From: Anagrus nilaparvatae
Taxonomy: Eukaryota > Arthropoda > Insecta > Hymenoptera > Mymaridae
Direction of reading: 5' to 3'
DNA: 64,000 nucleotides
Assembly (NCBI GenBank): GCA_022575985.1
Contig: JAKSXM010000007.1
Location: forward strand, 23,872,501-23,936,500
Below the pieces are notes generated by a model that was given only the letters and a program-made list of their open reading frames with translations, did not search any database and was not told the DNA's origin. Both the position numbers and the translations under genes were made by a program. Positions 8,992 to 35,300 of this stretch are shown here, piece after piece (within the stretch, counting starts at the first letter, position 1; the number at the start of each line of letters is the position of its first letter).

Positions 8992-11900
8992 GTAAATATT
9001 ATTTATTTATTTTTCTTCAAATTGTTAATTAAGTAAGGCATGAAAAAAATGTAGGTTAATAATATCTTATGGGGAGAATTATGATAAATGAAGATTCCTT
9101 GTTTTTTTTAATATCAGGGTCGATCAAGGCCGCGGGGCTTTATTATATTTCCGTTTTCTTATAATATTTCAAAAATACATCATAGATCAGCTTTTTTTAT
9201 TATTACAAATAAATAATATTAAGTTCAATGTTAAATTTTATTATATAATTAATTTAATATCCGGTATTTCTCTGGGTATTTAAAAATATAGAGTAGATAC
9301 TCTTGTGATTTATTATAGGACAGATAAAAATTAATTTAATTTTTCTAGTTAATATTTATCAAAGAGCGATAAAAAAATGTTACCTTATTTTTTGGAGATA
9401 ACATTTTGTAAATTTGTAATATAATAAAAAATATTAAAACTTGATTAAAACTCCAAAATTTTTAAGCAGAAATTGTAGTAAAACTTATGACATTACTTAA
9501 AATGCAAACTGCTTGAAAATTTAAATAGAGTAGGTAACTTAGCTGCATAGATTTCGTTTAAAAATTGTGTCTTTGAAAAAAGGTACCTAAATTTGGTACA
9601 TCCAGTTAACTGTAAAGTTCTATTCATGCAAATATCAAATAAGATGAATAAAAATAAGTGTTCCTGTATACTATTAAAATAAAAAAAAATTTACAAAAAT
9701 AAATAAACAATTTTTGTTTTTATTATTAATTTACAAATTAAAAATAAATTATAAATTTATTATTGTTACAATATTTACCTGGTATACAATATATGAATAA
9801 TAGTGAGGAAAAGGAAGTAAAAAAAAATTTCTCTTCAATTGTCGCGACAACCATACTGTGTAATATTAACTTCCTGTTCTTTTTTTGCAAAATATGTTTA
9901 AAAAATGATATTTTTTACATCTTCGTATTTTTTTTAGAGAATGTATACAGACTCAGTTTATAAATAAAATATTGTATAGGTGTAGGCGAGGGTGTAGGTA
10001 TATAAAATTGTATAAATTTATAAAAGAGTATAAAAAGACAAATTATACGGAAATAAATAAAAATTAACGCAGTAAGTATCAAAAAATTAAAAAATTTTTA
10101 TTTTATCAAGATTTAGTATACGTGTAATTGGTTATTTTAGGAATCAGGGCTTTCAAAAAGTTTTTTTTAGGAATTTTTACTTAATTATTAATAATCATTC
10201 ACTATTAAATTGCATTTCTTAGGTTGTAAAACTAAGTATTTTTTCGTATTATGTAATACACGACATAATTATGTACTTCAGTACTGCTTGATAGAGCTCA
10301 GGAATTTTTTAATCGAGTTTGTAATATCTATCAAAATTTAAACTTTTGGAACTCTGTAGGCATCCTAGCAGGCACGGAATTTTTCTTAAACTGATTTTGG
10401 CCCTAATTTATGTACAAAGTTTAAAAAATTTCGATTCAGACTGCTGCAACTCAACAAGAAGCACTTTGGTAAACAAAGTGAGGTGTACGATAATGATATA
10501 AGAGTACTTCGGAGTACTTTTATTATAATATTATGCAAACATCTTTCTTTTCATCTTTCAATGACACTCTTAATAAATTATTAAAATATATTAAATTCAA
10601 GTTTTGAAGGAATATCATATCATAAAAGTAGACAGAATGTATTCTTAATCGTGTGTTCTCGAGGTGTTTCTAATCTAAACTGATAATTTCATTATCTTAT
10701 TTGCCAATCTAAGCAAGTTTCCTTTTAAACTGAAAGCCATTAAAAAATGGAAGTATACTTTGACATATCAATTCTCACTTCTTTTTTTGTCATTTAATTT
10801 TCTTTTTTTTTGTAATTCTAACACTGTAATAATTGTTGCGCTATAAAATTTCATTATATGTGTGAGAAATACTTATTTATTGTTCTTTTAACGCGTGAAT
10901 TTTTTCCTTTTATTTTTGTAATACGCATTACTTATATTGTTATAAATGTAATAAATAGTTTACACGTACTTTTTTAAATAAAAGAAACATTGTTAAATAA
11001 TATTTTTATGTAATTTAAAAATTATTTTGAAATTTTTTATATATATGAGATAGTTTTTAGTTTATTATTCAAAGAAACAGTTGTTTAAATATTGAAATAT
11101 AATTATCTAAGCTTCTGAATAACTATGCTTATCATTTATATCAATCAATTATTATACAGGTATTTTTTTTAATTGATAAATATTAATCAAATAATTATTA
11201 TTAAAACAATAATTTTCATTTTTAAGCGAGTTTTTAAGGTAGTTTACAAAATTAAGTTGGTGAAAAAATAGTACATTTTTAACCAAGGGAGCAAAAAAAA
11301 AAAAGGCCCAGATCGCACGTTAATTAGCATCCGAGGCGAAGCCGAGGATGGTAAACTGCGATCTGGGGTATTTTTTTTTTGTTCCCATGGACAAAACGAA
11401 ATTTTTCTTTCTCAGTGGGGTGAAAACGCGTTTTTTTCGATCTCGTTGCGGGGCGAAAAAAGTGTTTTCGGCCCGCTAGGAAGAAAAGACTTTTTACCTC
11501 CTTTTTACTACCCTCCTCCCTTCCCTTTGTCAGAGAAAATCAAATAAATAGGTGATAAGAAAAATCACATGTATTAGATGGGAACTGTCCTCGAGAAGCC
11601 CATACTTAAAGCATTGGAACGTGATCAGCCCGAAAAGTCTTATTCCGTTGATGACTTAATGATATTCAGATACTGTATCGAATTGCTCTTCAACAATAAG
11701 TCATCTTAATAAATTATCTCAAACTTTACAGAAATGTGAAAAAAAATTGAGACAAAAAACATACAACCAGTTTGCTTGCCAGTTTGTGATTTGATAACCA
11801 ACGAATACGGAACATGTTTAAATTTATATTTTGAATCTTAAAGCCTTTATAATTTTAAGTCCAAGACAAAAATGTTTAGCTCCTAAATCCTTATTATTCT

Positions 11901-12213: not shown

Positions 12214-15200
12214 CTTTCAATACAGTAAGGTTTTCGATAATAAAATATCTCCACTAAGTTTAATCAATAAAAAAACTTCAAAATTCGCGCTTATTTGGAT
12301 CTGCATTTATATAGTTTTAGTTTATATCTCAGCGGTAACTTCCAGATTCTTTCCCCTAATTCTTAATCAACCTTTTTGCATAAAAATTTACCTTGTCGTA
12401 ACTAACATATCCGTTCTCGTTTTTAATTTGTAAACTTGTTTTGGCAATACCTACCCTCAACCTACCCTTTAAATCTTCTTGAGAAACTTCTTTACACTGA
12501 TGACCAAATCAAATGAATGCCCAAAGACTTGTTAAATATAAAAAAGAATTTTATTTATTTGAATTTACGCATTATTATCTCATAAACAATTAATTTACAT
12601 ATTATAATTAAATTATACGTTATACAATAATAAATTAACGGAAAGTTCATAATTTAATCTAATGCCTAACAATTTAAATACAAAAAAAATAAAATTAATA
12701 ACTTCATAGTAGTAAATTAAAAAAACAATTCTTCAAGTAAAAAAATATGAGCAGAAAAAAAACAACAAAAAAACTATAATTTATTAATTAATTCTCAAAA
12801 TTTTCATGCTTACAAACTATTAAATACATATAAATTTTACTTTTTTGATGATACCAATCTATCACGAAGTGCATAACTACAAAAAAGCATAAATTTAAAT
12901 AAATTGGGTTAAATGTGAAAGCTATGCACGTTATCAGATAAAAAAAATTGATTAAAAAAAAAAATTAATGTGGAAAATTGATATTTTTTATTGATTTTTA
13001 ATATTATAATTGAGAAAGTATGTGTGTAGGATCTTATTATGAATATGTGCTTAAATTTAATAGGATGTAATAATATAACAAGTTTTATGTTATTAGAAAA
13101 TTTGTATTTAATTTCAATGTTAATAATAATTTGCAAGATTAAAAAAAAATTAAAATTAAATTAAATACTTATTAAAAAAATAAACAATAATGATTATGTG
13201 TTATTATATATAAATAATTATTGTTATTATTGCAAAGCTATCTCGAGGACTTTTTATCAAAAGGGAAAGGAATTCCGGAGAGTCATGTGCTAGTAAGAAG
13301 TTAAAACCGTTTATGGTATAAATAGTGTTAAATAAAAGTAAATTGTTTCACGTAGTGTAGTATAGTTTAACAAGCTATTATTGTTATTATTATCATTGAA
13401 AAAAAATTGTTAATTGAATTGAAATTTGCAAAATGTTGGTTTCAGGAATATACTTTATTGAAAATGTATTTTCATTAATTAAATTAAATTATGCAATATC
13501 ACACAAAAATTCATTGACTCTTATTATGTAGGTTAGACAATATGAGTGTACGATGAGAATCGAGCTGGGAATCTGAGAACTTGTTGAAAAATTATCGACA
13601 AATTATTTAGAAAATAGATTTTAAATGCAAAAATAAAAAAGACCCTTTATCCCTTCCCACTCCCATCTCGATTAAAAATTCACCAAGTACTCCTCTCATC
13701 ATGTTCCAAATTAATAGTAGTATTCCTCCTTCATAAAATATACGGTACTCAATACGGTATTAAGCTCGGTATTGAGTAGTATTGAGATTCTTTAAAATCG
13801 CAAAAAATGCAACTATTTTATTTGAAAATCAAAATTTGACATAATCTCAAAAAAATTGTATTTTTAGCCATTATTCATATGACTTGTGTAGATAAATTAA
13901 AAAATAAATTCGAAAATAAAGAAATATTTTTGTAATACAAATTAATCCAAAATAAGATACTAATATTTTCTTTGTATGCAACTCTAAATAATCTCGTAAA
14001 TATCTGAGTAAAAATAAAAAAAAACTACCCCATGCATTGAAATAACCCAAACACTCTAATATAAATTTTAAAAATACTTTTGAATATTTTCAAGATTTGA
14101 TCTCCTTTTATATTTTCAAAAATAATATGCACACGAGTGTACATATCTCTTTATTATTATTATTATAATTATAAATTTAAAAATTTTTTGCATGCATATG
14201 TTTTTACACCAAAATATAAATACACTTTAAAGTATACGAGAAGAGAAAAGTTATAAAACCCAGAGAATATTTCTTAAAATAAATGAAAAATAAAAAATTT
14301 TTCGTCTATAGAATGTTTAACCTGGAATCGTGACAAATGTCCTAAATGATTATAACTGTAAATAACAACGCATTCTTAGATTATAATTTTTATATACTTT
14401 TTATTTTATTTATATTTATGTGTAAAAAAAATTAACATGCAATTATCTGATTATATTATTACAACCTTGCTTGTTGTACTTATTGAAGAAAAATTGAATT
14501 TACCATTTTTAGCTTTCTCTATTCTCGTTTTTTTATTTGGAATGTATTTATTGGTACACATTTTTTTTTTCTTAAGCATTATTTCATGGTTTGTAAGTAA
14601 TCTTTGAATTTATTTACTCTAACAGAATTATTATCCAAGTTATTATCACTTGAATAAAATATAGAAATTTTATTAAGGACAGTGAAAATTATGCTTTCAA
14701 AAATATCATTTGACTCTAAATTTAGAATTTACATTTTACAGATCGGACAAGATTTACCAATAAAAAAAATATTTTTATGATTTTTAAAAATAAAAATTTC
14801 GCTTTGCATATTTAAAATTATATGACTTAACCTTTTTAGTTTTTATAGATATTGAATAATATTTGCAAGTATTTATTACTGAAATCGTTCAATTTTACGC
14901 TTGAAATTATACAAGTGTCAATAAACTAAAAGATATAAATCTTTTTTAAAAAAATTTTTTATTTTTAGCTAATATTACTTGAGCTAAATCTTATATGAAA
15001 ATACATAAAAAAATTTTTTATTTATTTTTTTTAGTTTAAATGGAATAGATTTATCTTTATTTGCAATCTTTTTTGCTTAATTTTAAATAAATATTGTTAT
15101 AGTAATCGAGGGTATTTTACGGGATTTGATGGATTTGATGGATTTGCAAATCCATCAAATCCATTCAAATCCATTCAAATCCATTCAAATCCATTCAAAT

Positions 15201-18200
15201 CCATTCAAATCCATTCAAATCCATTCAAATCCATTCAAATCCACTCAAATCCATAAAAAACTATAAAAAACATTAAAATTCTTTCATACTTCTAAAAATA
15301 CTTTCAAATCTGATTTAAAATCCGTTTTATAGGCGTTTATGTAAAAGTTCTTACACTTGTACTCAATGTTCTTATCAAATAATTTAATTTAAAAAGGCGT
15401 ATGATTACAAGCAGTAATTTCTCTTGTTCTCGCGCTCGATCAATCTTACCCAAACCTCGCATCGCCTCGTTCTCAGTAGCGATCTGGGTCTCACATATAT
15501 AGTATTTTTTCTTACAGATATTTATTTATTTTAACTAATTTTATTTGTCAAAAATAGGAGCAAACGTAGATTTCTCGATATACTTATAGAATTATAACAT
15601 TTTTATTTTGCAAAAACATTTTTAATTAATTAACAATTATTCTACTACAAATTTATTTAATGGAAGTTAGTGCAGGCATTACCGATGCACGATTACAATA
15701 TTATACAATTTTAAATAAAAATGTGAAGCAGTAAAATTTGAAAATTTATAATAATAATAAATGCTTAAGTACACTGAAAAAAAAAATTCAACCTAGCGTC
15801 GAAATCCTCCTGTTCATACGTGAGGTAGGAAGTATACGTCGACGCGTATAGTATTCAACTTCGACGTGGCGTAGGATCCTATTGTATACAGCCGGCGTCG
15901 ACTAATGTTCCGACGTCGCGCTTGAAAAGAATTGATCGACGCCGCCACGATACACGTTTTAACTGCACGTGAGTTTCCATTCTACGAGCGCTCATATTAT
16001 TGATTTGAGTTATTTAAAAATCTATTAATCTTTTTGAATTATTAAACTCGTAGATAATAAATTTTAATAATTATTTAATTTAAATAAAAAAATTAATTTA
16101 GAAAGCTATATATGTATATATGTATATTTAATGATATATATAATTATATAAGATTATTATTTTTATTTATAAATAATATATAGATGCGATATAATTTTAT
16201 TTTATTTATTGAAAATGAAAAAAAACCACGCAGTGTTACATACAATTTTCAACGAGAGTAAATAGATTTGCAAAATAAATGAATGAATGTTCAAAAATTT
16301 GCTTTATTCAGAATTTTTTTTATGATCCTAAAATTGCAATATTGATTTTTCATTTTCAAAAATTGTTAAACAATTAACCCTCCGTGTGTCCACTGTGCTG
16401 TGTCCCGTAGGTCGATATCGTCCCAATCGTTTTACATTTTTTAACTCCTTAAAAAATAATTTTTTGATAAAATTTTTTTAAAAATGTTTTAGACAAACAT
16501 TTCATAATCACGAAAAAAAAGTTTTTTGGCTAAAATGTCCAGTCAGTTTTGCGCAAAAAATTTTGCAACAACCATAAACAGGCATTTTTTAAATTTTCGG
16601 TCGAAAATTCATATCTCCTACCCTAATTGATATTAAGGGGTAATAATCTAGGGTTTTGAGCTTCATATATATGACTTTAAAAAAACCCTACCCAAATTTG
16701 CCTCAGATCCAAAAACCATAATTATTTTGCGATATAAAAATTGGCCCTTTTCCTCGATTATAAAAATTTATAAAAATTGAAGGTTTTGTTGTATAAACAG
16801 CCTCCCAGGATCATTTAATGGCCAAAAAAGTTATTTGTGGGGCTGAAGTATAATAACCTTTATATAAGTACATAAAAAAAATTTAGCCAAAAAAAATTAT
16901 CACTCAAAACCATATAAAGGGTCAATTTAAATAAGAATTTAATCGCTATTCTAATTAAATTCAAATATTTAAACAAAGTCGGGACTTAATAAGTTACACA
17001 AATGTAATGTGTAAAGCATAAAAATTACCAACTAATCAACATTAAAGTGAAGGTTTAATCAAAAGTAGTGTGTAAATTGATATATTCAATACGTTATATA
17101 TTAAATTAGTTAAATAATAAAATTTAATTATTACACCAGGCACGGAAAAAAATGACACGTCAAGCCATACACTAGTGTAACCTAAGGAAGTAGGCTGTAT
17201 TAAAAAACGACACGTCAAGCCTTACACTAGTGTAACCTAGGCGATACCAAAAAAACGACACGTCATGCCTTACACTAGCGTAACCTAAGGAATCCGTCTA
17301 TAATAAAAAAACGACACGTCAAGCCTTACACTAGTGTAACCTAGGCGATACCAAAAAAACGACACGTCATGCCTTACACTAGCGTAACCTAAGGAATCCG
17401 TCTATAATAAAAAAACGACACGTCAAGCCTTACACTAGTGTAACCTAGGCGATACCAAAAAAACGACACGTCATGCCTTACACTAGCGTAACCTAAGGAA
17501 GCCGTCTATAATAAAAAAACGACACGTCAAGCCTTACACTAGCGTAACCTAGGTTATATTAAAAAAACGACATGTCAAGCCTTACACTAGTGTAACCTAA
17601 GGAATCCATCTATAATAAAAAAACGACACGTCAAGCCTTAAACTAGTGTAACCTAGGCGATACCAAAAAAACGACGCGTTAAGCCTTAAACTAGTGTAAC
17701 CTAGGCGATACCAAAAAAACGACGCGTTAAGCCTTACACTAGCGTAACCTAAGGAAGTAGCCTGTTTTAAAAAACGACACGTCAAGCCTTACACTAGCGT
17801 AACCTAAGGGAGTAGGCTGTATAAAAAAACAACACGTCAAGCCTTACACTAGGGTAACCTAAGGAAGTAGGCTGTATTAAAAAACGACACGTCAAGCCTT
17901 ACACTAGCGTAACCTAAGGAAGTAGGCTGTATTAAAAAAACGACACGTTAAGCCTTACACTAGCGTAACCTAAGGAAGTAGGCTGTATTAAAAAACGACA
18001 CGTCAAGCCTTACACTAGCATAACCTAGGTTATCCTATCCTAAAAAAGACATTGCTCATCGCAACGGTTGCTATGTGTAATCGCAATAAAGTCATTCTGA
18101 TTGGTTCTCACAATAATGTAAACAAACATTATATTATACACGCAGTTGAATCTAGTATTAAAAAAACGACATGTCAAGCCTTACACTAGTGTAACCTAAG

Positions 18201-21200
18201 AAAGTAGGCTGCATTAATACGCGACGCAATTTTTTTTTAACAGAAAAAAAAGTGAACAAAGATGAGTTGAGCAGAAAAAAATGAACAAAAAAAGTTGAAA
18301 ATAAAAATTTTTGAACACAAAAAATTGAACAAAATTTTTTGACCAACAAAAAACTTGGTTCAACTTTTTTTCTTCAAAAATTTTTCTGTCCAATTATTTT
18401 TGTTCAAAACTTCCTATGTTCAAATTTTTTTGTTCATTTTTTTCTGTTCAACTCGTCTTTGTTCACTTTTTTTTCTGTTCAAAAATAATGGCGTCCATTA
18501 GCGTAACCTAAGGAAGCGGTCTATAATAAAAAAAACGACATGTCAAGCCTTACACTAGCGTAACCTAAGTAAGTAGGCTGTATTAAAAAAAAGACACGTC
18601 AAACTAGTGTAACCTAGGCGATACCCAAAAACGACAAGTCAAGCCTTACACTAGCTTAACCTAAGAAAGCCGTCTATAATAAAAAAACGACACGTCAAGC
18701 CTTACACTATCGTAACCTAAGGAAGTAGGCTGTATTAAAAAAACGACACGTCAAGCCTTATACTAGTGTAACCTAGGCGATACCAAAAAAATGACACGTC
18801 AAGCCTTACACTAGCGTAACCTAAGGAAGCCATCTATAATAAAAAAACGACACGTCAAGCCTTACACTAGCGTAACCTAAGGAAGCCATCTATAATAAAA
18901 AAACGACACGTCAAGCCTTACACTAGCGTAACCTAAGGAAGCGGTCTATAATAAAAAAACGAGACGTTAAGCCTTACACTAGCGTAACATAAGGAAGTAG
19001 GCTATTTTAAAAAACGGCACAAATTCAAAATGGCGGCCTCAAAATTCGCCCATTTTTGAAAAATTAGCCAAATATGAGTTCAATTTTTGGCGTAACACTA
19101 ATAAGAATATTGATAAAATATCTAGGAGTTTTTGGATATGCTGACTACGAAATTAGTAAAAACTAAATCACAAGCCTTTTATGAACATTGATTATTCACC
19201 ACTTTTACCCTTATTTTCCACCCCTAGATGAAGTTTCATCATTTTTTTGAGTTCATATTTGAAATCAGCAATCTTGAGAACCCCCGATATAGATTTTCCA
19301 GTAAGAATAAAAACTTTTAAAAAGAAAATAAAGAATTTTTATAAATGACTTTTCACCCCTTTTCACCCCAATTTTCGACTCCTCGATAAAATTTTATGTT
19401 TTTTTGAAGTTCATATTTGAAGGCAGCAGCCTCAAAAACCCTAAGATATAATGTTAGACCAAATACTGCTAGTGTAAGGCTTGCGGTGTCGTTTTTTTAA
19501 TCTAGACTATTTCCTTAGGTAACGCTATTGTAAGGCTTGACGTTTCGTTTTATTATTATAACCTAATTCATCAGTTTATGTTAGTGTAATGCTTGACGTG
19601 TCGTTTTGGTTCCTCATAGAGGAACCTTTGTGTTCGGTAAAATTTTGATTTCTTGACATATAAACACGTTTTGAGACCTCAGGAAGCTAAAAAACCGGTT
19701 TTTAAAAAAGTCTGTAACCGGTTATATTTCACAACCAACATTATATTAAGACTTAATTTTTTTTTCAAAATTTTTTTCACTAAAAAAGCTGGAGGTCCAT
19801 TTTTTTTTTAATTTGGATGTAATACCTCATTCATTTCCATGAAAATACATATATTTGAAAATATGCTTTTTACTCGATGTCTTGAATCTTATAATTAATT
19901 TAAAAAAAAATTTTTTTCTTAAAATTTTTGTTACCAAAAAATACAAAAAATACATTTTTTTCTATTTGGACGTAGTACCTAATTGTTTTCTATGAGAGTA
20001 CTAGTTTTAGAAATATAATTCATAGTCAATTTTTGGATTGGATACGTAATTTCATGAAAATTTTTTTCTCCAAATTTTTGCCGCCAAAAAATATAAAAAA
20101 TGCCAATTTTTTTTTTTAGAACGTAGTACTTAATTTGTTTCTACGAAAGTACGAATCTAGAATTATCGTTTTTAAAGGATTTCTCCATCTGATACGTAAT
20201 TTTTCGAAATTTTTTTTTTAATCATTTTTTACATAAAAAAATTAAAAAAACACCATAATTTTTTTTTCTATTTGAACGTAATACTCAATTTATTTCTGTG
20301 AAAGTAATATCTGGAATTATCATTTGTAAAGGATTTCGCCATCTGATACGTAAATTTTCGAAATTTTTAAAATTTTTTGTATAAAAAAATTAATAAAACA
20401 CAATAATTTTTTTTCTTTTAGGACGTAGTAACTAATTTATTTCTATGAAAGTACAAATATCTAGAATTATCGTTTTTAAAGGATTTCTCCATCTGATGCA
20501 TAATTTTTCGAAATTTTTTTTTTTTATTTTTTTGTATAAAAAAATTAAAAAACACAATAATTTTTTTTCTTTTTGGACGTAGTACTTAGTTTATTTCTAT
20601 GAAAGTACTAATATCCAGAATTATCATTTTTAAAAAATTTCTCCATCTTAAAAATAAACCACATTTTTTTTTTAATGATTCAGTAATTAATTTCTTTCTA
20701 TAAAAGTATACGAATATCTAGAATTGTCGTTCGTAAAGGATTCCTCCATCTGATACGCAATTATTCAAAATTTTTTTTTTAACATAAAAAAATTAAAAAT
20801 ACACCATAATTTTTTTTTCTTTTTGGACGTAGTGAAAGTACTAATATCTAGAATTATCGTTTTTACTCGATATCTCCAATCTGATATACTTAATTTTTTA
20901 AAAAATATTTTTTTAAATTTTTCATATAAAAAAATTAGAAAAAAAATTATTTTTTTTTTTTAGGACTTAGTACTTAAGGAGTTAGGAAGGTAAATAGAAA
21001 ATTTGAGTCAATATCCACATTACCGACGTTATTTTTTTTTTATAATTTGCAGTTTAAAATAAAATTGGTCGTAAAAATATTAACAAATGAGTTTATTATG
21101 TAATATAATTGCAAAAAAAATTATTTTAATTTTATAAATTATGAAAAAACATTATTATTTTAGGTTATGGTACTTGCTAAAACTTGGTTTTTACCGAATA

Positions 21201-24200
21201 ATTAATGATTAAATGTGGTAACCTAGATAAAATAAATTGGAAATATAATCTTTGACAATTTATTTATGATATTTAATTAGTTTCATCTGCTTGAGTCATC
21301 ACTATCATACTTTTTGTAAGCTCCAAATATGAATTTCCATAAGAGCAATGTTAAACTGCCTATTTTTAATTTGCAATAAAATGAAAATTAATGTGGTAAC
21401 AAAGGTAAAACCAAGTTCTATTCAACTTTAAAAATGTTTAAATTTAATAATTTTCCAGTTTCATTCAGTTCTGTCATCATTTTTATTTACCCTCCTAACT
21501 CCTTAATTTCTATGTATGAAAGAACGAATATCTAGAATTATCGTTTTATCTAGAATCTAGAATTATGGTTTTTACTAGGTAAAGTAGACCATTATAAACA
21601 TTTTGTTATTGTTAATGAGGAACCATAGTTCCAATTAATTGGTAGCGTTTTTTTATTATAGACCGCTACCTTATGTTATCTTAGTGTAAGGCTTGACGTA
21701 TCGTTTTCTTTAATATAGCCTAGGTTACCCTAGTGTAAGGCTTGACGTGTCGTTTTTTTATTATAGCCTAATTCCTTAGGTTACGCTAGTGTAAGGCTTG
21801 ACGTGTCGTTTTTTTAGTACAGCCTACTTCCTTAGGTTACGATAGTACATGGCTTGACGTGTAGTTTTTTTGGTATCGCCTAGGTTACACAAGTGTAAGG
21901 CTTGACATGTCGTTTCCTAATACAGCCTACTTCCTTTGGTTACCCTAGTGTAAGGCTTGACGTGTCGTTTTTTTTATTATAGCCTACTTCTTGAGGTTAC
22001 GCTAGTGTAAGGCTTGACGTGTCGTTTTTTTATTATAGACCGCTTTCTTAGGTTATGTTAGTGTAAGGCTTGACATGTCGTTTTTTTAATATAGCCTAGG
22101 TTACGCTAGTGTAAGGCTTGACGTGTCGTTTTTTATTATAGCCTACTTCCTTAGGTTACGCTAGTGTAAGGCTTGACGTGTCGTTTTTTTAGTACAGCCT
22201 ACTTCCTTAGGTTACGATAGTATATGGCTTGACGTGTAGTTTTTTTGGTATCGCCTAGGTTACACAAGTGTAAGGCTTGACATGTCGTTTCCTAATACAG
22301 CCTACTTCCTTAGGTTACCCTAGTGTAAGGCTTGACGTGTCGTTTTTTTTATTGTAGCCTACTTCTTGAGGTTACGCTAGTGTAAGGCTTGACGTGTCGT
22401 TTTTTTATTATAGACCGCTTTCTTAGGTTATGTTAGTGTAAGGCTTGACATGTCGTTTTTTTAATATAGCCTAGGTTACGCTAGTGTAAGGCTTGACGTG
22501 TCGTTTTTTATTAATGACCGCTTCCTTAGCTTACGCTAGTGTAAGGCTTGACGTGTCGTTTAATTATTATAGACTACTTTTTTAGGTTACGCTAGTGTAA
22601 GGCTTGATGAGTCGTTTTTTTGGTATCGCGTAGGTTACACTAGTGTAAGGCTTGACGTGTTGTTTTTTTATACAGCCTACTCCCTTAGGTTACGCTAGTG
22701 TAAGGCATGACGTGTCGTTTTCTTATTATAGGCCGCTTCCTTAGGTTATGTTAGTGTAAGACTTGACATGTCGTTTTTTTAATATAGCCTAGGTTACGCT
22801 AGTGTAAGGCTTGATGTGTCGTTATTTATTATAGTCTACTTCCTAAGGTTACGCTAGTGTATGGCTTGAAATGTCATTTTTTTATAATAAACCGGTTTCT
22901 TAGGTTATATTAGTGTAAGGCTTGACGTGTCGTTTTCTTATTATAGGCCACTTCCTTAGGTTATGTTAGTGTAAGGCTTGATGTGTCGTTTTTTTAATAT
23001 AGCCTAATTCCTTAAGTTATGTTAGTGTAAGGCCTGACGTGTCCTTTTTTTATTATTTACCGCTTTATTAGGTTACGCTAGTGTAAGGCTTGACGTATCG
23101 TTTTTTTATTATAGACCGCTTTCTTAGGTTATGTTAGTGTAAGGCTTGACGTGTCATTATTTTATTATAGCCTATTTCCGTAGGTCATGCTAGTGTAAGG
23201 CTTGACGTGTCGTTTTTTATTATAGTCTACTTCCATAGGTTACGCTAGTGTATGGCTTGACATGTCGTTTTTTTATTCTAGCCTACTTCCTTAGGTTACA
23301 CAAGTGTAAGGCTTGACATGTCGTTTTTTTATTATAGACCGCTTTCTTACGTTATATTAGTGTAAGGCTTGACGTGTTGTTTTTTTAATATAGCCTACTT
23401 CCTTAAGTTATGTTAGTGTAAGGCTTGACGTGTCGTTTTTTTATTTTAGCCTACTTCCTTAGGTTACACTAGTGTAAGGCTTGACGTGTCGTTTTTTTAT
23501 ATAGCCTACTTCCTTAGGTTACGCTAGTGTAAGGCATGAGGAAAAAAGAGTCGAAATTCTTGATTTGTGACCCAAAAAACCTATACGGACATATCCGGGA
23601 TGCTTAAAGTGCGAAAATATCAAAAACGCACCTCTTATGGGTAGTTTTGGCTATTTTAAGGGTGAAATATTGAATATTTATGAAAAAGTCGAAATTCTTG
23701 ATTAGCGACCCAAAAAACCTATTCGGGCATATCCTGGATGTTGAAAGTGCGAAAATATTTAAAACATCCCTTATCGGGGTAGTTTTAGCTATTTTATGGG
23801 TGAAATATTGAGTATTTATGAAAAAAGAGTCGAAATTCTTGTTATTTATCAAAAAAACCTATACAGACATATCCTGGATGCTCAAAGTGCGAAAATATTA
23901 AAAACACCCCTGTTGGGGTAGTTTAAGCTATTTTAAGGGTGAAATATTGAATATTTATGAAAAAAGAGTCGAAATTCTTGTTATTTATCCAAAAAACCTA
24001 TACAGACATGTCCTGGATGCTCAAAGTGCGAAAATATTAAAAACACCCCTTTTGGGGGTAGTTTGAGCTATTTTAAGGGTGAAATATTAAATATTTATGA
24101 AAAAGGAGTCGAAATTCTTGATTAGCGACTCAAAAAGCCTATATATTATGGGCATATCCTGGATGCTCAAAGTGCGAAAATAGCAAAAACACCCCCTTTT

Positions 24201-27200
24201 GGGGGGTAGAATTAGCCAATTTAGCGGTTAAATTTGAATTATTTATGAAAAAGAAGTCAAAATTCTTTATTAGCAACCCAAAAAGTCCATATGGTGCAAA
24301 TCTGAGCGCTGAAAGTGCGAATATGTAAAAAAAACCCCTTTCTGGGGGTAGTTTTAGGAAATTTAAGGGTGAAGCCCCAATTTCTTTACGAAAGGACCCC
24401 AATTTTCTTTTTCAGCGACCCAAAAAACCTATAAACCTCCCCCCCAACGGTATGTTGCCTGGAGTAATGATTAAATTTTATTATTTAATTAATTTATACT
24501 ACGGATTAAATAAATAATGATTTAATTTTTATGTTTAAATTCTGATGCTAATTGACACAATAAGGTTTTGAGTGTAAGGTCGGAATAAAATTTGGGAGAC
24601 TAAAATAATGAATTTTTTTGGGAATTTTTTTTTGTTGTAAAAAACACAAAATTTTGCTATGTATTTTTTTTTTTTTAATATAAAAAATAGTTTATGCAGC
24701 AACAAAAAACATAGCAACAAGAGCAACACGTGCAATTGTAATTTTTTATTTACAGTAATTTTATTCACTGACTGCGTAGAACTACAGTATACAACACGTT
24801 GCCGGTAGAAATGAGCGGCGTCGAAGTCGTGCCTTGCAACGCCTCGTCGAAAGAGTCGACGACGTCCAGCCGGAATAGTTTACACGCTGCGTTAAAAACG
24901 CGCCATGTATAGGTGGAAACTGAAAATACGACGCGGCGTAGTTATTGTACGAGCCTCACGTTATGAGCTACTTCAACATTACGTAGATAAGAATTTTTTC
25001 AACTCTGGGTCGAAAAAATTTTCGGCGCTAGGTTGAATTTTTTTTTTGAGTGTATAATCAAATTAAATATTATAAATTAATACATCTGAGAGCTAAATTA
25101 TTAGATTTTTTTAACCATTATGTTTTGAAAATCAAATCCTTGGGATCAAAAATTTGTGCACACATGAAGCAAATTTTATAATCTAATTTTTTTAGGCCTG
25201 TAAAATATTAATTATTTATCGTTGTTTTAGTCTCTAATTGACCTGTATCTACTTAATAAAGTTCTGGTTTATTTAAACAACAGTAATATTTATAAATTTA
25301 ATTCTTTTAATTTTTTATCAATGATAAAGGATTCCTAGGTACGAGAAAAATTAACTAAATAATCAAGGGTCTATCATCAAAAAAAGACACTTTAGAAATA
25401 GTATTTAATAAAAAAAATCACACGTCAGGCCTTATACTAGCGTAGCCTAAGGAAATAGGCTATAATAAGAAACGACACGTCAAGCCTTACAGTAGCGTAA
25501 CCTAAGGAAGTAGGCTATAATAAAATAACGACACGTCAAGCCTTACAGTAGCGTAACCTAAGAAAGTGGGCTATAATAAAATAACGACACGTCAAGCCTT
25601 ACAGTAGCGTAACCTAAGGAAGTAGGCTATAATAAAAAACAACACGTCAAGCCTTACAGTAACGTAACCTAAGGAAGTAGGCTATAATAAAATAACGACA
25701 CGTCAAGCCTTACAGTAGCGTAACCTAAGGAAGAAGGCTATAATAAAATAATGACACGTCAAGCCTTACAGTAGCGTAACCTAAGGAAGTAGGCTATAAT
25801 AAAATAACGACACGTCAAGCCTTACAGTAACGTAACCTAAGGAAGTAGGCTATAATAAAATAATGACACGTCAAGCCTTACAGTAGCGTAACCTAAGAAA
25901 GTAGGCTATAATAAAAAACAACACCTCAAGCCTTACAGTAACGTAACCTAAGGAAGTAGGTTATAATAAAATAACGACACGTCAAGCCTTACAGTAGCGT
26001 AACCTAAGGAAGTAGGCTATAATAAAATAATGACACGTCAAGCCTTACAGTAGCGTAACCTAAGGAAGTAGGCTATAATAAAATAACGACACGTCAAGCC
26101 TTACAGTAGCGTAACCTAAGGAAGTAGGCTATAATAAAATAACGACACGTCAAGCCTTACAATAGCGTAACCTAAGAAAGTAAGCTATAATAAAATAACG
26201 ACACGTCAAGCCTTACAGTAGCGTAACCTAAGGAAGTAGGCTATAATAAAATAATGACACGTCAAGCCTTACAGTAGCGTAACCTAAGGAAGTAGGTTAT
26301 AATAAAATAACGACACGTCAAGCCTTACAGTAGCGTAACCTAAGGAAGTAGGCTATAATAAAAAACGACACGTCAAGCCTTACAGTAACGTAACCTAAGG
26401 AAATAGGCTATAATAAAATAACGACACGTCAAGCCTTACACTAACATAACCTAAAGAAAAAGACTATAATAAAAAACCTACACTAAAATTTAATGGAGAT
26501 GAAGATAATTAAAAAACAAATCCATTGATCCCAAACAATACCCAGGTTCCTGGTTAATTAAGAAAGAAATAAGCAACTCAAAATTTTTAAGGTTAAACAC
26601 GCGTTCTTATGGGAGTTGATATTGTTTTACTTCGTACTCATTCAATAACGAATCTTTTTAGATAAAATTGTACACACGTGTTATTTAACAAAAGTAGAAA
26701 CTTTTCCAAGAAAAAAATACAATAGTTGCCGATCAAATTATAAACACATAATTTTAGTCGTGGGCTCCTTTCAATAAAATGTTTTGTAAATAAAAAATTT
26801 TGTTTATACCACACTCATTATATAAGAAAATGCATTATTATTAATAATAACTTCTAAATATTCGCATATCCATAAAATAATTAATATAATTTAATTAATT
26901 AGTTATACCCCCCTCTGATCACACCCTAAAATCTATGGACCTAAAACCGGGAGCCACCTTAAATATAATTTTCTCTGATAAAAAATAACCTTTGAGTGAA
27001 GTGTAAGTCTGATGAAATAAAAAAATAAATCAATCTTTCAGCTCTAGTTGTAATTTCGGGTTTATTTGAATTATTATCGGTTACTTATATTTTTTGAGTC
27101 ACTAAACACGAATATGATGTTTGTTTTTACTTAAAATGCACCAGTTGCCCACATTAAATATCTTTAGGTAATTGCTACGCATTCATCTTCTATTGTAGGG

Positions 27201-29331
27201 AATAAGAACAATTTAGGTAAAAACAAATGTCGTATTCATGTTCAGTAGAGCGTGTTTTAATTTTTTGTTTTCAAGATTTTTTTGCTCTCCCCACATTTGG
27301 ATATTTTGGTCATAAAACCCCCCATCTTCAAGGATTTTACTCGTACCACCGAGCACTTAAAGTTTCCCATTTAAATAACATGGGAATTTTTACTTTTCAG
27401 TTTTCTAATTTTTTAACATGCTTTAAAATTTTTTTAAACACTAGCTAGCAGATAGAAAATGATGTTTAGACGTATAATATTAAAAAATGATCATTTTTAT
27501 TTATTTTCAAAAATACTTTTGTCCCTTCCTTTTTAAATCAATTTAATAATAAAAATATATAATACAGAAAATATAGTAAATTTAATAACTAGAGTGCAGA
27601 TATAGTTGGGTATTTAAATTTAATATTAAATTTTGAAAAAGAAAATGTCTGAAATTTACTAAAATTTGTTTGTAGGAAACTCTGGAAATTCAGGGAATTT
27701 GGTTTGTAAAATTTGGTTGAAACACTAAAAAAGTACTGGAAAATTTAAGAAAAATGGTCTGGAAAGTCAGGGAATTTTAAAACTTCAGTTCCGTGGCCAC
27801 CCTGACTATACCATTGCATGAGGTTATGTTGGTGTAACTCTTGCGTGTGTGTGCGAAATTTTTGTCTCAATCTAATGCTTTCAAAAATTAAAAAAAAAAA
27901 CCCCTAAATTTTTATTATTTTTGGACGTAATACCAAATACTTTTCAATGAAAGTAATAATTTTATAAAACTCGGTTTTAATAGATTTATTGGGTCTGATA
28001 ATTAATGATTTGAAAAATTTTTTTATTATTTTTAACGTTTTTGTCATAAAAAAAACTCGAAAAAAACCGAGAAAAAAACTGACCTGATACTTAATTATTT
28101 GAAAAGTTTTGTCTCCAAAATTTACGTTGTGTTGGTGTAAGGCTTGACGTGTGTTTTTTATTATAGCCTACTTCCTTAGGTTACGCTACTGTAAGGCTTG
28201 ACGTGTCGTTTCTTATTATAGCCTACTTCCTTAGGTTACGTTACTGTAAGGCTTGACGTATCGTTATATTATTATAGCCTACTTCCTTAGGTCACGCCAC
28301 TGTAAGGCTTGACGTGTCGTTTTTTATTATAGCCTACTTCCTTAGGTTACGCTAGTGTAAGGCTTGACGTGTTGTTTTTTTAATATAGACTATACTTCCT
28401 TAGGTTACGCTACTTTAAGGCTTGACGTGTCGTTTCTTATTATAGCCTACTTCCTTAAGTTACGCTACTGTAAGGCTTGACGTGTCGTTATTTTATTATA
28501 ACCTACTTCCTTAGGTTACGCTACTGTAAGGCTTGACGTGTCTTTTTTTGATGATAGACCCTTGATTATTTAGTTAATTTTTTCGGAGATTTTTTCAGCA
28601 GAAACACCGAGTACCTCGGAATCCTTTATCATTGATAAAAAATTAAAAGAATTATATTTATAAATATTACTGTTGTTTAAATAAACCAGAACTTTATTAA
28701 GTAGATACAGGTCAATTAGAGACTAAAACAACGATAAATAATTAATATTTTACAGGCCTAAAAAAATTAGATTATAAAATTTGCTTCATGTGTGCACAAA
28801 TTTTTGATCCCAAGGATTTGATTTTCAAAACATAATGGTTAAAAAAATCTAATAATTTAGCTCTCAGATGTATTAAGTTATAATATTTAATTTGATTATA
28901 CTTAAGCATTTATTATTATTATAAATTTTCAAATTTTACGGCTTCACATTTTTATTTAAAATTGTATAATATTGTAATCGTGCATCGGTAATGCCTGCAT
29001 TAACTTCCATTAAATAAATAAATAAATAAATACTTATTAATTGGATCAAAAAAGTACCCTAAATAAAATAAGAATCTTAAAACCTGTTTTAAAAAGAAAG
29101 AACCTATTTTTTAATTTTTTTTTTAAATTAATTTACAAATTAGTTTATGACGTGGGTTGTAGAATAATTGTTAATTAATTAAAAATGTTTTTGCAAAATA
29201 AAAATCTTATAATTCTATAAGTATATCGAGAAATCTGCGTTTGCTCCTATTCGAGCTCCTATTTTTGACAAATAAAATTAGTTAAAATAAATAAATAAAT
29301 TATTTAAATAAATAAAATTAATTATTTAATA

Positions 29332-29364
<33 letters not shown>

Positions 29365-32300
29365 CCAAGTCCAAAACTAGCACCGCATACCCTATAAACC
29401 CTAAAAACGGCGCGTCCCCCACTTTTCCGCGCGTCGCTTAAAACTCTGGCCGAACTGCCGCGGAACTGTCTAAAACTTTAACGAACTCGCGCATTACAGT
29501 TTTTATAAAACTGCCACTGAACTGGCGCGGAACTCTTGCGCTGTCCACTGCTATGTACCCCTCGAGGGATTGGTTATTGCCCTCTTAACCCCCCCTACGT
29601 ACCTTAAGTATAATAATTCCATGTTATTGCCCCGACTTTACTCGGGACTGCACGTAAAGGGGTTAAGGCAGATAACAGTACTGTAGAATTTTAAGATCCT
29701 GATTTTTGTAATCAGCAACCCAAAACACATATATAATGTAAGTTTTAAGAGTCATTTAAGGTTTGTATTTAGATTGTCGCGAATAAGTCCTAGCCCTAAC
29801 ATGGGTAGGTTTTATCCCAGTATGAGCAGATAACAAACTTAGGACTTCGACACCCACATAAGCAACCCAAAAAACATATGTTGGTAATTTAAACCGTTTT
29901 GAACGATTATTCAAAGTTTACACTTAGACTATCGCGCAAAAGCCCTAAAAAGGGGGAACTTTTGCCCATTATGAGCATATTACACAGCGATAGGATTTCA
30001 GTATTGCGATTTTCGAAATTAGCGACCCAAAAAACATGTAATACCGTACTTTGAGCGTTTATTCAAATTTTTTTATAATTAGTTTATTATGAAAGTTCTA
30101 AAATAGGCAGCTTTTGCCCATTATGGGCATACAATTCAACCTTAGGATCACGGGACCCTGATTTTCGTAATCAGCAGTCAAAAAGTATACAAGTCAGTAT
30201 TTCGAAAGGTTATTAGAAGGTTATTTAAAGATTTTACTTAGATTTTCGCAAAAAGGCCCTAAAATGGGCAGCTTCTGCCCATTATGGGCATTCCACATAA
30301 CCTGAGGATTTTGTAACTCTAATTTTCGTAATCAGCTACTAAAAAAATATCAACAATGGTATTTTGAACTGTTATTTTATATTCATGCTCAGATTAATTA
30401 TCGCACAAAAGCCCTAGCATGGTCAGTTTTTTGACCATTATGGTCGGACAACACAACTTTGGGGCTTTGCAATGCCCGGACTCATGATCAAAAACATAAA
30501 ACACATACAAAGAATGTAATCTTCATTTATGGAGTGTAAAAAACATATTGCGTTGGACGCTTACTATAATATAATGCGTATTTACAATTTTAAGGTTTTT
30601 CCTTGGATTTGAGTGGATTTGCAAATCCCAAATGCATTCAAATGAATTAAAAACCATTAAAATCCATTCAAATCCATTCAAATCCCATTCAAATCCCATC
30701 AAATCCCATCAAATCCCTTCAAATCCAAGTGGGATTTGCAAATCCACAAATCCTCAAATCCCGTAAAATACCCCCCGATAGTAATAAACGTCAAATATAA
30801 ATGTAAGGTGCTGATATTTAAAATTGATCGAATAAATTTTTATTATCGTTATGTTATGGTTTGTTAGTCGAAAATCAAGCTGTTTCTAGTTTTTTTTTCA
30901 AGAATGTTAATGCTTATTTTTTGACCTATTTTGCATAAAACTCTCGCAGATATTATTATAATAAATGGCCTTATAATTTAAGAAAAAATTTACTCTATCA
31001 TTATATGGTGATTGATTTAATGATTTAATAAAATTGGCATATAATTTGGACCACAAATGCAATTAAATTTTTTTAAATAGGCTAAAATATACAATCAGCA
31101 CAAGTAAACTCCATTCCAAATAAGAACGAATTAACCTTGATTTAGGGGAAATGAGTAATCTCATTGATATATGAGTTTACACTTTATCCTCGAACCTATA
31201 ATGAAATTATCAAATGAGTATGACTAAGTGTTGTTATCAACACGGTAGAGCTGCTTTGGTTGAATATTAAACCAGTTGGTTGAAAATTCGACTAATTTAA
31301 ATCAGGGAATATCCCACCCATTTGGAAACTTGCTTTTTAGAATCAATTTTTTTAATTTTGTGTTACTTCGGATATAAAAAATTATCGTCCTATTTCCGTT
31401 GTATGTGCAATATTTAAATTATTTGATCATATTCTGTACTTATATGTATTATATGAAAAGTTTTCTCATTTAACACATTCGCTGCGGCATGGGCGAAATG
31501 CGCCCATGATCCCATGTATTTTAAATGGAGTCACGTGACCTGCCGCAGCGAATGTGTTAATTTCACATCACCAACATGTATTTATGAAGGGCATGTCCAT
31601 TTCCACTAGTTTCTTTGGTTTTTCTAATGATACTGTAAATGTTATTGATAAAGGTGGTCAAATGGGTGTGATATACCTTTATATTTCTAAAGCCTTAGAT
31701 ATGGTAAGTCATCATGTAGTTCTTGAAAAGATTTATAATATTGAGATTAAAGATAGCGCTCCTGAATGGATTAAATCTTATTTTTCAAATCGTTAACAAT
31801 CTTTGAAATTCAAGGGTACTATCTCTGATTGGTAGGCTGATTGGTTTCATGTAACTTCTTGTGTTCCCCAAAGGTCACACTGGTCTTTTCCTGTTTTTAC
31901 TTTTCATAAATCACCTACATCATCATATTCAATTTTCTAAACTCTAACTTTTTGCTAATGACTCTAGGCTCCATTGCCCGATTTACTCAACCATTAACTC
32001 TACCCTTTTACAAATTGATATTCTAAACTTTTTCTTGATCAAATGCAAATGAATTATGCGTTAATATTTCAAAATCTCAGCTTTTTTAAAAATTCAATTA
32101 CGTTTAAGTTAAATTACCAGTTAAGTGGATTTACCACTTAGTAAAGTATCTAAAGTTCAAGATCTTGGGATTATAGTTGATGAAAATTGATCTTTTAGCA
32201 ATCACTTAAATCATCTGAGGAAATCGAAAAAGTCATAAATTCACTAGAAGTAAAAAAAGCAAAAGGTAATGATAATATCAGTGCTGCAATCCTAAAAACC

Positions 32301-35300
32301 ATAAGTAACTACGAAACGAAACCAATTTCCTATATTTTATATTTAATTGTAGAAACGGAGGTATTTCCTGACAGCCTTAAAATTGCAATAATTACACCAA
32401 TATTCAAATCAGGTGATAGTCACCTATGTAAAAACTATAGACATATAGACCTTTTATCAAACCTGACAATAATATTTGAAAAACTAGTAAAGATTAGGAT
32501 AGTTAGTTACCTAGAAAAATACAACATTTTAGCAAAAAGACAATACGGATTTAGAGAAGGCTGCAACACAAGTATGGCCATTGATTACTTAACTGAAAAT
32601 ATATACGAAACTCTAGATACCTCCACCCATATGGCGGTAATATTCCTTGATCTACAAAAAGCATTCGATATGGTTGAACATAACATAATATATAGTAAGT
32701 TAGAAAATATTGGTATACGTGGAAAGACAAAAAATATAATTAAAAGTTACTTGGGAAATCGGAAGCAAGTTGTGAAAATAGATGACTGTTACAGTAGTGA
32801 ATGTAATGTCGAGATAGGAGTACCACAGGGGCCAGTCCTAGGTCCAATACTATTTCTTATATATATAAATGAATTGTTATATCTATTTGAAAATGATATC
32901 ATATCGTTTGCAGATGATACAACAGTGGTATGTAGAGGAAAGAATTGGATAGAGGTTGAATGGGACGAAAATCACAAAATGAGGAAAATATATGATTGGG
33001 TTAAACGAACAAATTAATACTAAATATAGAAAAGACAGAATGTACCACTTTTTCCATTTATAAATTCACCTAACGCAAAGAGTTTAATATTAAAATTGAA
33101 ATGAAAACGATTAAAAGCAGATTAAAAGGGTTACTGAAGGCAAGTTTCTGGGCATCATAATAGATTCGAATCTAAGATGGGAAACTCAAATAAAAAAACA
33201 GTAAAAAATATAGCTTTTTATACCTATATTATAAGGAAACTGTGTAGAGTACTAAATTACAAACAAACATTACAAATATACTATGCACTAATTCAATACA
33301 CTGTTATGTATGGCATGGTGGCCAACAAAATAGACCTTCTAAATTTAGTACTACAAAAATTCAAAAAATCACATATAAAAAACACAAACATTTACCAGAA
33401 TTCGAAGAAGAGTACAAAAAATTGCTATCAGTAAAAAATTTATATTATATTACAATCATTAAAAGTAAAATTCAATATTTGATAGAGAAGTACAAGCTAA
33501 AGCAAAATAGAACTAAAAAAAATAACCCCTATAGGTAAAAAATGGAAAATGGGACAAAAAAGTAGCCTTTACAATGCAATATCAATATTCAATAGGTTGC
33601 CTATTGATATAAAAAACAAAATAAAAGTAAATAATAGTAAAAAAATAAGTAATATCCAAAACATTAAATTATGGTTAAGCAAAAATAATTATAGAATATA
33701 TGTATATGTAACAAACATGTGTAAACTTATGTACAGCTAGTTAAATAAATAAATAAATATAATATTAACTTCAAGTAGAATGATTTGTCTTATTAAACGC
33801 TCTACGTATGACTTAAGGTCACCGAGGTCTCTTTCCATTTTTTTTAAAACATCGGCTTTAACCCATATGTCCTATTTGGTTCTATTATTTGTAGACCCCA
33901 TACTCAACAAGTCCGTAACCAGCTTGAAAGTATTACAAATAAGTTATTAAAGTTTTCATCATTCAATATATGGGAGAATGGATTTGATTATCACAATTAT
34001 AATTCTATTTCTAATAAACTTAATATATTTACTATTGACACTTTTCTGGATATCAATGATATTTTAGTTGTTCATTGTTGTCTTTATATGATAATAAACC
34101 TAAATTCCAAATTACAAAAATAAAATATAATTTAAGATTTGCTCGGAAGGTTAAGCTAATTATACCATACCCAATTTTGCCTTTTATTCACCCTATTATA
34201 GGCTTTGTACGATTTGAAATTCTGACAGGAATTTACATAAACTATTGTCTGAAGTTGATGCATTAGTATTTAAACAGATAATTAGAAGCCAATATTTAAA
34301 ATGTTATGAATGAGTAGTTTACTATTTGAGTAATTAATATTTTTATATTATTGCTTTATCATTCATAATTTTACTTTGCTTAACCTTACTTTACTTTAAT
34401 TTAATTAAATATAATAAATTACATTTATTATAGTAAATATTATAATGTTTTAATTACATGTTCAAATGTTATATAATTTGTTATATTTTTAATATTTTTA
34501 TTATTTTATAGTTGACCTTAACCTTAATATGGTTTGATTTTTCTTACAAATTCAATAAATTTTAAATTAACATTTGTATTGGAATATATTTAAGGGTAAT
34601 AATAACCGTTGGATATAAATAAATAAATAAAAAGATGTAATATTCAACCAAAAGCGTCCAAAAGCTAAAATACAAAATAAAAATGATGTAAATAATAGAG
34701 GGTAAAAAAATGATCTGTGCGTCGATTCAAAGAGAATTAATTTTATTATATATTACAATTAGTGATTTTAATCCACTACTGAATTTGGCTCTAAAGCTGC
34801 TCTGAAGCTGAGAAATGCCTAACTAAAAAGATTACCCTACATAGAATAACAATAAAATAACGTCTTTACTTAAATTTACAACTATATACCTATGAAATCA
34901 TATTCATGTTTTTTTTTATCAATGTATATTTACTTTTTTTTTGTAAATAAAAAAAAATGTACTCTGCTAACTGGAGCATAAATTTAAAATTACTCTTTAT
35001 AAAATTAATTTTTCAAAAAGTTATTGATCACACACTCCATTATAGGTAGTTTAAATTAAAAATTATTGTTTTAAATTAAATTAAGTAATCTTTTTAATTA
35101 GTCATTCCTCAGTTTCAGAGCCAAATGAAGTAATACATAAAAAACCACTAATTTTAATTATATTATAAAATGAATTCATAGGTAAAAGGTGAATCAAACC
35201 ACGTATATATACTTCATATTTTTAAATTAAAAAAAAGAAAATGAAAACATTAAGATAAATTAACAATGAATGCATAAAATTTTTACATTAAATGGTAAAT

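What the first reader, a model, noticed from the sequence alone, without database searches (positions are those of the whole stretch)
15107..30777. A 15.7-kb giant fold-back transposon with satellite-built arms and an 8-bp target duplication
Seen: inverted termini sharing GGTATTTTACGGGATTTGA, immediate flanking direct repeats ATAGTAAT, mirrored terminal minisatellites, mirrored unique arms, and facing arrays of one satellite family. Known: Drosophila FB and Galileo elements also have long inverted repeats made of tandem subunits and 7-9-bp duplications. Inferred: this is a non-autonomous element that moves or amplifies a satellite, a possible route by which a heterochromatin-type satellite reaches a euchromatic intron. 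I know of no described family with these termini.
Basis: partly seen in the sequence, partly recalled or inferred. Interest (0 to 1): 0.88.

Follow-up and report, generated by a model that had tools for sequence, protein, structure and literature searches.

The report
Satellite-carrying foldback transposon, nested in layers
This stretch is one of 35 paired-end copies of a mobile DNA element in its genome, each copy read in full carrying facing blocks of the same 56-base satellite; here it is split by a second kind of mobile element with that satellite too, so the satellite has likely spread through the genome by riding on several different elements.

Summary
The ends at 15107 and 30777 and the 8-bp duplication define a real transposon family, F1: 35 inverted end pairs in the genome, 34 with an exact flush 8-bp duplication. 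The 24 copies read in full all carry facing arrays of one 56-bp satellite; no DNA-transposase frame was seen in them. The window copy is nested: a 6.39-kb F1 element is split by a 9,281-bp element of a second family, F2 (15772-25052; 17 pairs, 2-bp duplications in 17 of 17), which carries the same satellite in the same facing order and itself holds a 525-bp TTAA-flanked insert. The satellite also sits in two more foldback families with other arms (F3, F4). F1, F2 and F4 share a homologous spacer inside the arrays; the one F3 copy read does not. So a satellite-bearing core sits under ends whose duplication lengths point to different transposases. Closest known are Tetris (Drosophila virilis) and Galileo, where one central region occurs under different ends within one superfamily. 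The insert lies in an intron of about 41 kb of an EFHD2/Swip-1 homologue. The autonomous partner and superfamily of F1 are unknown.

The parts
15099..15106 (.). left 8-bp target site duplication ATAGTAAT of F1
15107..15153 (+). F1 left end (CGAGGGTATTTTACGGGATTTGATGGATTTG...), about 47-bp terminal inverted repeat
   Evidence: terminal IR length (positions 4-47 in L017)
15147..15254 (+). left terminal 10-bp minisatellite CAAATCCATT
15519..15771 (+). outer part of F1 left arm, before the nested insert
   Evidence: element positions 413-665
15772..25052 (.). nested second transposon (family F2), 9,281 bp, TA duplication, ends CACTGA10TTCAACCTAGCG / CACTCA10TTCAACCTAGCG
17146..18027 (-). 56-bp satellite array of F2, '<' orientation
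18627..18997 (-). 56-bp satellite array of F2, '<' orientation
19468..19607 (+). short 56-bp satellite array of F2, '>' orientation
19907..20648 (+). about 150-bp repeats of F2, homologous to the spacer of F1 and F4
20978..21502 (.). third-level insert of 525 bp with inverted ends GGAGTTAGGARGGTAAATA, TTAA on both sides; absent in L029 and L030
21646..23539 (+). 56-bp satellite array of F2, '>' orientation
25053..25342 (+). rest of F1 left arm, after the nested insert
25420..26477 (-). F1 satellite array, '<' orientation
26462..28114 (+). F1 centre; 27809-28027 is the spacer shared with F2 and F4
28136..28557 (+). F1 satellite array, '>' orientation
28566..29297 (-). F1 right arm (inverse of left arm)
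30629..30727 (-). right terminal 10-bp minisatellite
30731..30777 (-). F1 right end (reads CGGGGGGTATTTTACGGGATTTGAGGATTTG inwards)
30778..30785 (.). right 8-bp target site duplication ATAGTAAT

Best explanation
The interval is one copy of a transposon family (F1: inverted ends, 8-bp target duplications), predicted to be non-autonomous and moved by a transposase supplied elsewhere, split by a later insertion of a second transposon (F2, 2-bp duplications) that carries the same 56-bp satellite. Shown: 35 F1 end pairs, 34 with exact 8-bp duplications; 17 F2 pairs, all with 2-bp duplications; facing satellite arrays in the 24 F1 and 4 F2 copies read in full; and the nesting order F1, then F2, then a TTAA insert. 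Inferred: F1 copies are cut and pasted by a transposase that binds the conserved end and perhaps the terminal GGATTTGA repeats. Unit number in the inverted arrays likely changes by unequal exchange or replication slippage. Exchange between satellite cores, or old nesting, would have put the same core under different ends, so that the satellite spreads into gene-rich DNA on more than one carrier.
For: Ends: 37 + and 35 - exact matches against 0 control. With up to 3 mismatches there are 80 matches against 1 control: 74 family ends, which make 35 inverted pairs and 4 singles, plus 6 distant matches. Duplications: 8 bp exact and flush in 34 of 35 pairs (20 of 21, 10 of 10, 4 of 4); the exception, L014, has an altered right end. 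Nesting: the uninterrupted sequence is present in 9 other copies. F2: 35 matches making 17 pairs and 1 single, 0 control; 2-bp duplications in 17 of 17 and 3-bp in 0 of 17. No stop-to-stop frame over 138 aa in 20 F1 copies or the window copy. Of the three other large copies, the two with the same non-LTR insert and the one with an LTR insert show long frames; the two frames tested are non-LTR endonuclease/reverse transcriptase and Pao-type. Satellite: all '<' units precede all '>' units in 21 of 21 copies, and length follows unit number with r = 0.96 in 15 A-type copies. A spacer inside the arrays, taken from F4, matches 23 of 24 F1 copies and 4 of 4 F2 copies at E of 2.5e-13 or better; four reversed targets give nothing at E <= 0.01. 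The F1 end is repeated inwards as a GGATTTG-type minisatellite in the 21 copies printed.
Against: No autonomous partner was found: 0 of 150 scored hAT and 0 of 150 scored MULE hits lie inside the 35 F1 intervals. One hAT fragment lies 466 bp outside the C312 copy. Both lists were capped (412 and 341 first-look candidates), and 11 F1 pairs were not read inside, so an autonomous copy could be missed. F1 copies are mostly about 97-98% alike outside the arrays, so current activity is not shown. Arms within one copy are hardly more alike than between copies (98.8% against 98.6%, 16 copies). The one F3 locus read lacks the shared spacer, and F1 copy L009 lacks it too. 28 of 38 sampled satellite loci are in none of F1-F4, so transposon spread is not shown for all satellite.
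Confidence: 0.82

Rival explanations
1. A single 15.7-kb foldback transposon whose whole interior, satellites included, moves as one unit.
For: Flush 8-bp duplication and matching ends; other large F1 copies exist: 10.6, 13.6, 13.8 and 15.7 kb.
Against: 15772-25052 has its own ends and TA duplication, and 9 other copies hold the uninterrupted site. F2 has its own pairs elsewhere. Three of the other large copies are big because of retrotransposon inserts; the 10.6-kb copy was not read inside.
Confidence: 0.04
2. The satellite core is itself an old transposon that inserted separately into ancestors of F1, F2 and F4; the shared spacer and constant polarity are relics of that element.
For: Same polarity at 9 of 9 sampled loci with both strands and in 21 of 21 F1 copies; the shared spacer lies inside the arrays and unrelated arms lie outside.
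Against: No shared ends or duplication at the outer array borders of the families (by eye); in F1 the arms outside the arrays are inverted too, so the inverted structure does not stop at the core.
Confidence: 0.3
3. Satellite arrays entered each transposon family independently, for example from extrachromosomal satellite circles, and only the satellite is shared.
For: Monomers cluster by family: for about 256 of 280 sampled F1 monomers the nearest monomer in another copy is F1; the one F3 copy read shares no spacer.
Against: Non-satellite spacer homology between F1, F2 and F4; constant '<' then '>' polarity.
Confidence: 0.15
4. Assembly artefact: repeats joined wrongly to give inverted pairs.
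For: Satellite and inverted repeats are hard to assemble; no reads could be inspected.
Against: 34 of 35 F1 pairs and 17 of 17 F2 pairs have matching duplications at both ends in different flanks.
Confidence: 0.02

Closest known systems
Tetris of Drosophila virilis (Dias et al. 2014, PMC4079207; abstract, section 10 and part 1 of 2 of section 16 read)
   Same: Non-autonomous, no conserved frames, inverted repeats containing tandem arrays of variable unit number (TIR-220), 8-10-bp duplications, modular rearranged copies, satellite-like arrays outside the element.
   Different: Unit here is 56 bp, not about 220 bp. The terminal inverted repeat here is short and the arms are subterminal. 35 pairs were found here against 3 structurally complete copies reported there. 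The same satellite is in several families with different ends. Sequence homology was not tested.
Galileo of Drosophila, P superfamily (PMC3573991; abstract, section 8 and passages read)
   Same: Long internally repetitive inverted repeats; one central region found with ends of three subfamilies.
   Different: 7-bp duplications; the exchange is within one element family. Here one core sits under ends giving 8-bp and 2-bp duplications. No transposase seen here.
Tm1 and the Mutator/Foldback group (PMC3169594; abstract read)
   Same: Composite inverted repeats of variable length; many members without a transposase.
   Different: 9-bp duplications; a transposase-encoding member is known there, none found here.
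Helentron-carried satellite repeats of oysters (PMC7492417, search listing; review PMC12628747, passages)
   Same: Dispersed satellite arrays carried inside non-autonomous elements; the review says the same type of array occurs in different Helitron elements.
   Different: Those are Helitron-type carriers; here the carriers have inverted ends and target duplications of fixed length, and the arrays face each other.

Membership tests
Terminal-inverted-repeat (cut-and-paste) transposons, in general | inverted ends plus fixed-length target duplication at many sites | tested here: met
   F1 34 of 35 pairs with 8 bp; F2 17 of 17 with 2 bp
Foldback class (FB, Galileo, Tetris) | long inverted repeats containing tandem subunits | tested here: met
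   arms of about 750 bp and satellite arrays inverted in A-type F1 copies
Foldback class (FB, Galileo, Tetris) | the long inverted repeat runs from the very terminus (recalled) | tested here: not met
   only about 47 bp are inverted at the terminus; unequal end domains of about 370 bp and 1.5 kb follow
Mutator (MULE) superfamily | 9-10-bp duplication (recalled; 9 bp for Tm1 in PMC3169594) | tested here: not met
   8 bp in 34 of 35 pairs
Mutator (MULE) superfamily | MULE transposase between the ends | tested here: inconclusive
   0 of 150 scored PF10551 hits lie in the 35 intervals; 341 first-look candidates, 150 scored
hAT superfamily | 8-bp duplication (recalled) | tested here: met
   34 of 35 pairs
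hAT superfamily | duplication of the form nTnnnnAn and ends starting CAG/TAG (recalled) | tested here: inconclusive
   T at position 2 in 8 of 21, A at position 7 in 10 of 21; ends start CGAG or CGGGG, which does not fit
hAT superfamily | hAT transposase between the ends | tested here: inconclusive
   0 of 150 scored PF05699 hits inside, one fragment 466 bp outside a copy; 412 candidates, 150 scored
P superfamily (Galileo) | 7-bp (Galileo, PMC3573991) or 8-bp (P, recalled) duplication | tested here: inconclusive
   8 bp found; the P transposase search did not complete
CACTA/EnSpm, for the nested family F2 | ends CACTA/CACTG and 2-3-bp duplication (recalled) | tested here: met
   ends CACTG/CACTC, 2 bp in 17 of 17
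CACTA/EnSpm, for the nested family F2 | CACTA transposase in the family | not tested
   4 F2 copies read have no frame of 120 aa or more; no CACTA transposase search was run
Tetris | sequence homology of ends or of TIR-220 | not tested
   no Tetris sequence was compared

The most novel reading that the evidence does not exclude
A satellite-bearing foldback core behaves as a passenger cassette that has been taken up by at least two unrelated transposition systems, one making 8-bp and one making 2-bp target duplications, and by at least one or two more foldback families. It is a satellite that spreads by changing carriers.
Probability: 0.4. Interest if true: 0.78.

Novelty: new variant of a known kind. 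Interest (0 to 1): 0.62.

Why it matters
How satellites get into gene-rich DNA and why they are so widely scattered is an open question. Here the carriers can be named by their ends, dated by divergence and counted, and the same satellite core is found under ends that imply different transposases. That makes it testable whether a satellite moves between transposons, and whether array length inside a transposon seeds larger satellite blocks. The window also puts three layers of insertion into one intron of an EFHD2/Swip-1 homologue.

Tried and rejected
Relatives of the F1 end as pointers to an autonomous element: CGATGGTATTTTTCGGGATTTAA (4 exact copies) was followed. In the one copy whose neighbourhood was printed (L077) no F1-like repeat follows the end (by eye), and the reversed control gave 3 + 2 matches, so it was dropped; the other three were not examined further. 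Homology between the ends and the satellite monomer: none above shuffles. Homogenisation of the two arms within a copy: not supported. Target duplication of F3: unresolved; 6 of 9 pairs have AAT before and ATT after the end, and one pair (L088) shares a longer stretch. EF-hand patterns found nothing; recalled EFHD2 peptide words found the exon. Papers holding the satellite or end strings: 0 for six strings. Paper searches for foldback plus satellite terms returned 14, 1, 3, 4 and 1 papers; in the listings and passages I saw, none describes this family. The host species was not identified. My first window-against-itself comparison was cut at 400 matches; the repeat without that cut found one real match outside the element.
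Full report
Observation. The 19-bp end GGTATTTTACGGGATTTGA occurs once on each strand of the window, and ATAGTAAT abuts both ends. Terminal 10-bp minisatellites and several 56-bp satellite arrays are present, as are inverted unique arms. Against the rest of the window the element has one 64-bp match (27352-27415 with 35832-35895, 91%) and simple AT-rich or TAA repeats.

The family. In the 488.7-Mb assembly that holds the window, the 19-bp end has 37 + and 35 - exact matches, with 0 for the reversed control. With the 23-bp end and up to 3 mismatches there are 80 matches (1 control): 74 are family ends, making 35 inverted pairs (5,248 to 15,708 bp) and 4 singles, and 6 are distant. I read 24 of the 35 pairs in full: the window, 20 and 3 large ones. 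I read only the ends of the other 11. The left ends start CGAGGG (CAAGGG in L026) and the right ends CGGGGGG, except in L014, whose right end is altered. The 8-bp duplication is exact and flush in 34 of 35: 20 of 21, 10 of 10 and 4 of 4. In L014 a 7-bp match is found shifted by 3 bases. The duplicated 8-mers differ from copy to copy and show no strong consensus in the 21 tabulated.

Anatomy. A-type copies (15 of the 21 tabulated) read: left end domain of about 370 bp with the minisatellite, arm of about 750 bp, satellite array '<', centre of about 1.65 kb, satellite array '>', inverted arm, right end domain of about 1.5 kb; some lack part of the centre (L009, L026). In 21 of 21 copies all '<' units lie before all '>' units. 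Unit numbers run from 5 to 48 on the left and 4 to 39 on the right, and in the 15 A-type copies the length follows the unit number (r = 0.96, 51 bp per unit, intercept 5.2 kb). Four copies (L012, L014, L015, L023) keep the ends, satellite and a related centre (87-90%) but have no match to the A-type arms; in the two checked, L015 and L012, other inverted arms are present. L010 and L022 are further rearranged. One copy (C62:23.36 Mb) has the centre inverted. Modules therefore change places, as in Tetris and Galileo.

The window copy is nested. Against L017 the window copy breaks at element position 665 and resumes at 9946. The insert, 15772-25052 (9,281 bp), has ends CACTGAAAAAAAAAATTCAACCTAGCG and CACTCAAAAAAAAAATTCAACCTAGCG and a TA duplication; nine other copies hold the uninterrupted AATGCTTAAGTATAATCAAATTA in the left arm. 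Without it the host element is 6,388 bp, within the usual size. The end pattern of the insert has 35 matches in the genome and 0 control, making 17 inverted pairs and 1 single. Duplications are exactly 2 bp in 17 of 17 pairs (TA in 9, TG in 3, CA in 2, AA, CT and CG once each) and 3 bp in none (the window, L029-L031 and the two tandem copies on C317 read by eye from the printed flanks). Inside the insert, a 525-bp stretch with inverted ends and TTAA on both sides (20978-21502) is missing from L029 and L030. The nesting order is F1, then F2, then the TTAA insert.

The satellite is not private to F1. F2 carries it in facing arrays in 4 of 4 copies read (the window insert, L029, L030, L031). Two more loci, L032 and L033, have facing arrays inside inverted arms. 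L032 has no match to F1 or F2 outside the satellite; L033 matches only the spacer described below and one piece of about 100 bp found in the centre of L015. L032 belongs to a third family, F3, with 25 end matches making 10 inverted pairs and 5 singles. L119 is a second copy of the L033 family, F4 (96%). The 56-bp consensus differs at one position between F1 (first 400 of 641 monomers) and the others, yet monomers group by family: for about 256 of 280 sampled F1 monomers the nearest other-copy neighbour is F1. The satellite pattern has 5,770 + and 6,392 - matches at up to 3 mismatches, 0 control. Of the 575 exact places the first 100 are listed: 53 lie in F1-F4 and 47 do not, and 28 of the 38 loci they form are in none of the four families. 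The 9 loci with both strands all read '-' then '+'.

A shared core. A spacer of about 240 bp next to the inner edge of the arrays in L119 (F4) matches L033 (89%), 23 of 24 F1 copies (E 3e-25 to 5e-60; only a weak 44-bp match in L009) and 4 of 4 F2 copies (E 2.4e-13 to 7e-20). It does not match L032 (F3). Four reversed targets gave nothing at E <= 0.01; window sequence outside the element gave 0.001 at best. F1, F2 and F4 thus share non-satellite sequence in the core but not arms or ends.

Mechanism, with status. Shown: insertion with fixed-length duplications, nesting, array length difference and modular difference between copies. Inferred: movement by a transposase in trans, since no stop-to-stop frame over 138 aa exists in 20 F1 copies or the window copy. 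The three other large copies show long frames; the two frames tested match non-LTR endonuclease and reverse transcriptase (E 1.3e-29 for the latter) and a Pao-type retrotransposon (E 6e-48), not a DNA transposase. Inferred: change of ends by exchange between cores or by old nesting. By eye, the flanks of L011 and L026 match the 150-bp and 139-bp repeats of F2, so F1 likely also inserts into F2-like sequence. An autonomous F1 is not excluded: 11 pairs were not read inside, and 0 of 150 hAT and 0 of 150 MULE hits fall in the 35 intervals, but each search scored only the best 150 of 412 and 341 candidates.

Genomic place. Two exons of an EFHD2/Swip-1 homologue, at about 8807-8992 and 50400-50545, both on +, match EFHD2 structures when joined (E 3.5e-27).

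Known or new. Tetris (PMC4079207) is the closest in kind: non-autonomous, inverted repeats with tandem units, 8-10-bp duplications, satellite outside the element. Galileo (PMC3573991) shows one central region under ends of three subfamilies, in one family with 7-bp duplications. A review (PMC12628747, passages) says the same array type occurs in different Helitron elements. What I did not find in the held library is one satellite core under ends with different duplication lengths. I therefore rate it a new variant of a known kind.

Noticed in passing
window 20978-21502: 525-bp insert with inverted ends and TTAA on both sides, absent at the same place in L029 and L030
   Followed up: yes
window 8807-8992 and 50400-50545: exons of an EFHD2/Swip-1 homologue flank the insert, giving an intron of about 41 kb
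   Followed up: yes
window 35832-35895: 64 bp, 91% like the F1 centre at 27352-27415, outside the element
   Followed up: no
window 32199-33017 and 43014-44016: frames that look like non-LTR retrotransposon remnants in the same intron (by eye)
   Followed up: no
window 5016-5591 (-) and 60115-61513 (+): frames that look like a RhoGAP gene and proteasome subunit Rpn6/PSMD11 (by eye, untested)
   Followed up: no
L082-L083 and L086-L087: two F1 copies of 13.6 and 13.8 kb carry a non-LTR element of about 6.85 kb in the (TAA)n of the right arm, 98.8% alike; either two insertions into the same repeat or one composite that moved
   Followed up: partly
L068-L070 (C317:5408382-5425748): two F2 copies lie 8 bp apart, head to tail, each with its own 2-bp duplication
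   Followed up: partly
L086-L087: F1 copy with the centre inverted, which fits recombination between its inverted arms
   Followed up: no
L066-L067: an F2 copy inserted inside a unit of the 56-bp satellite (flanks, by eye)
   Followed up: no
G000:C312:34498: a hAT dimerisation-domain fragment lies 466 bp outside an F1 copy
   Followed up: no
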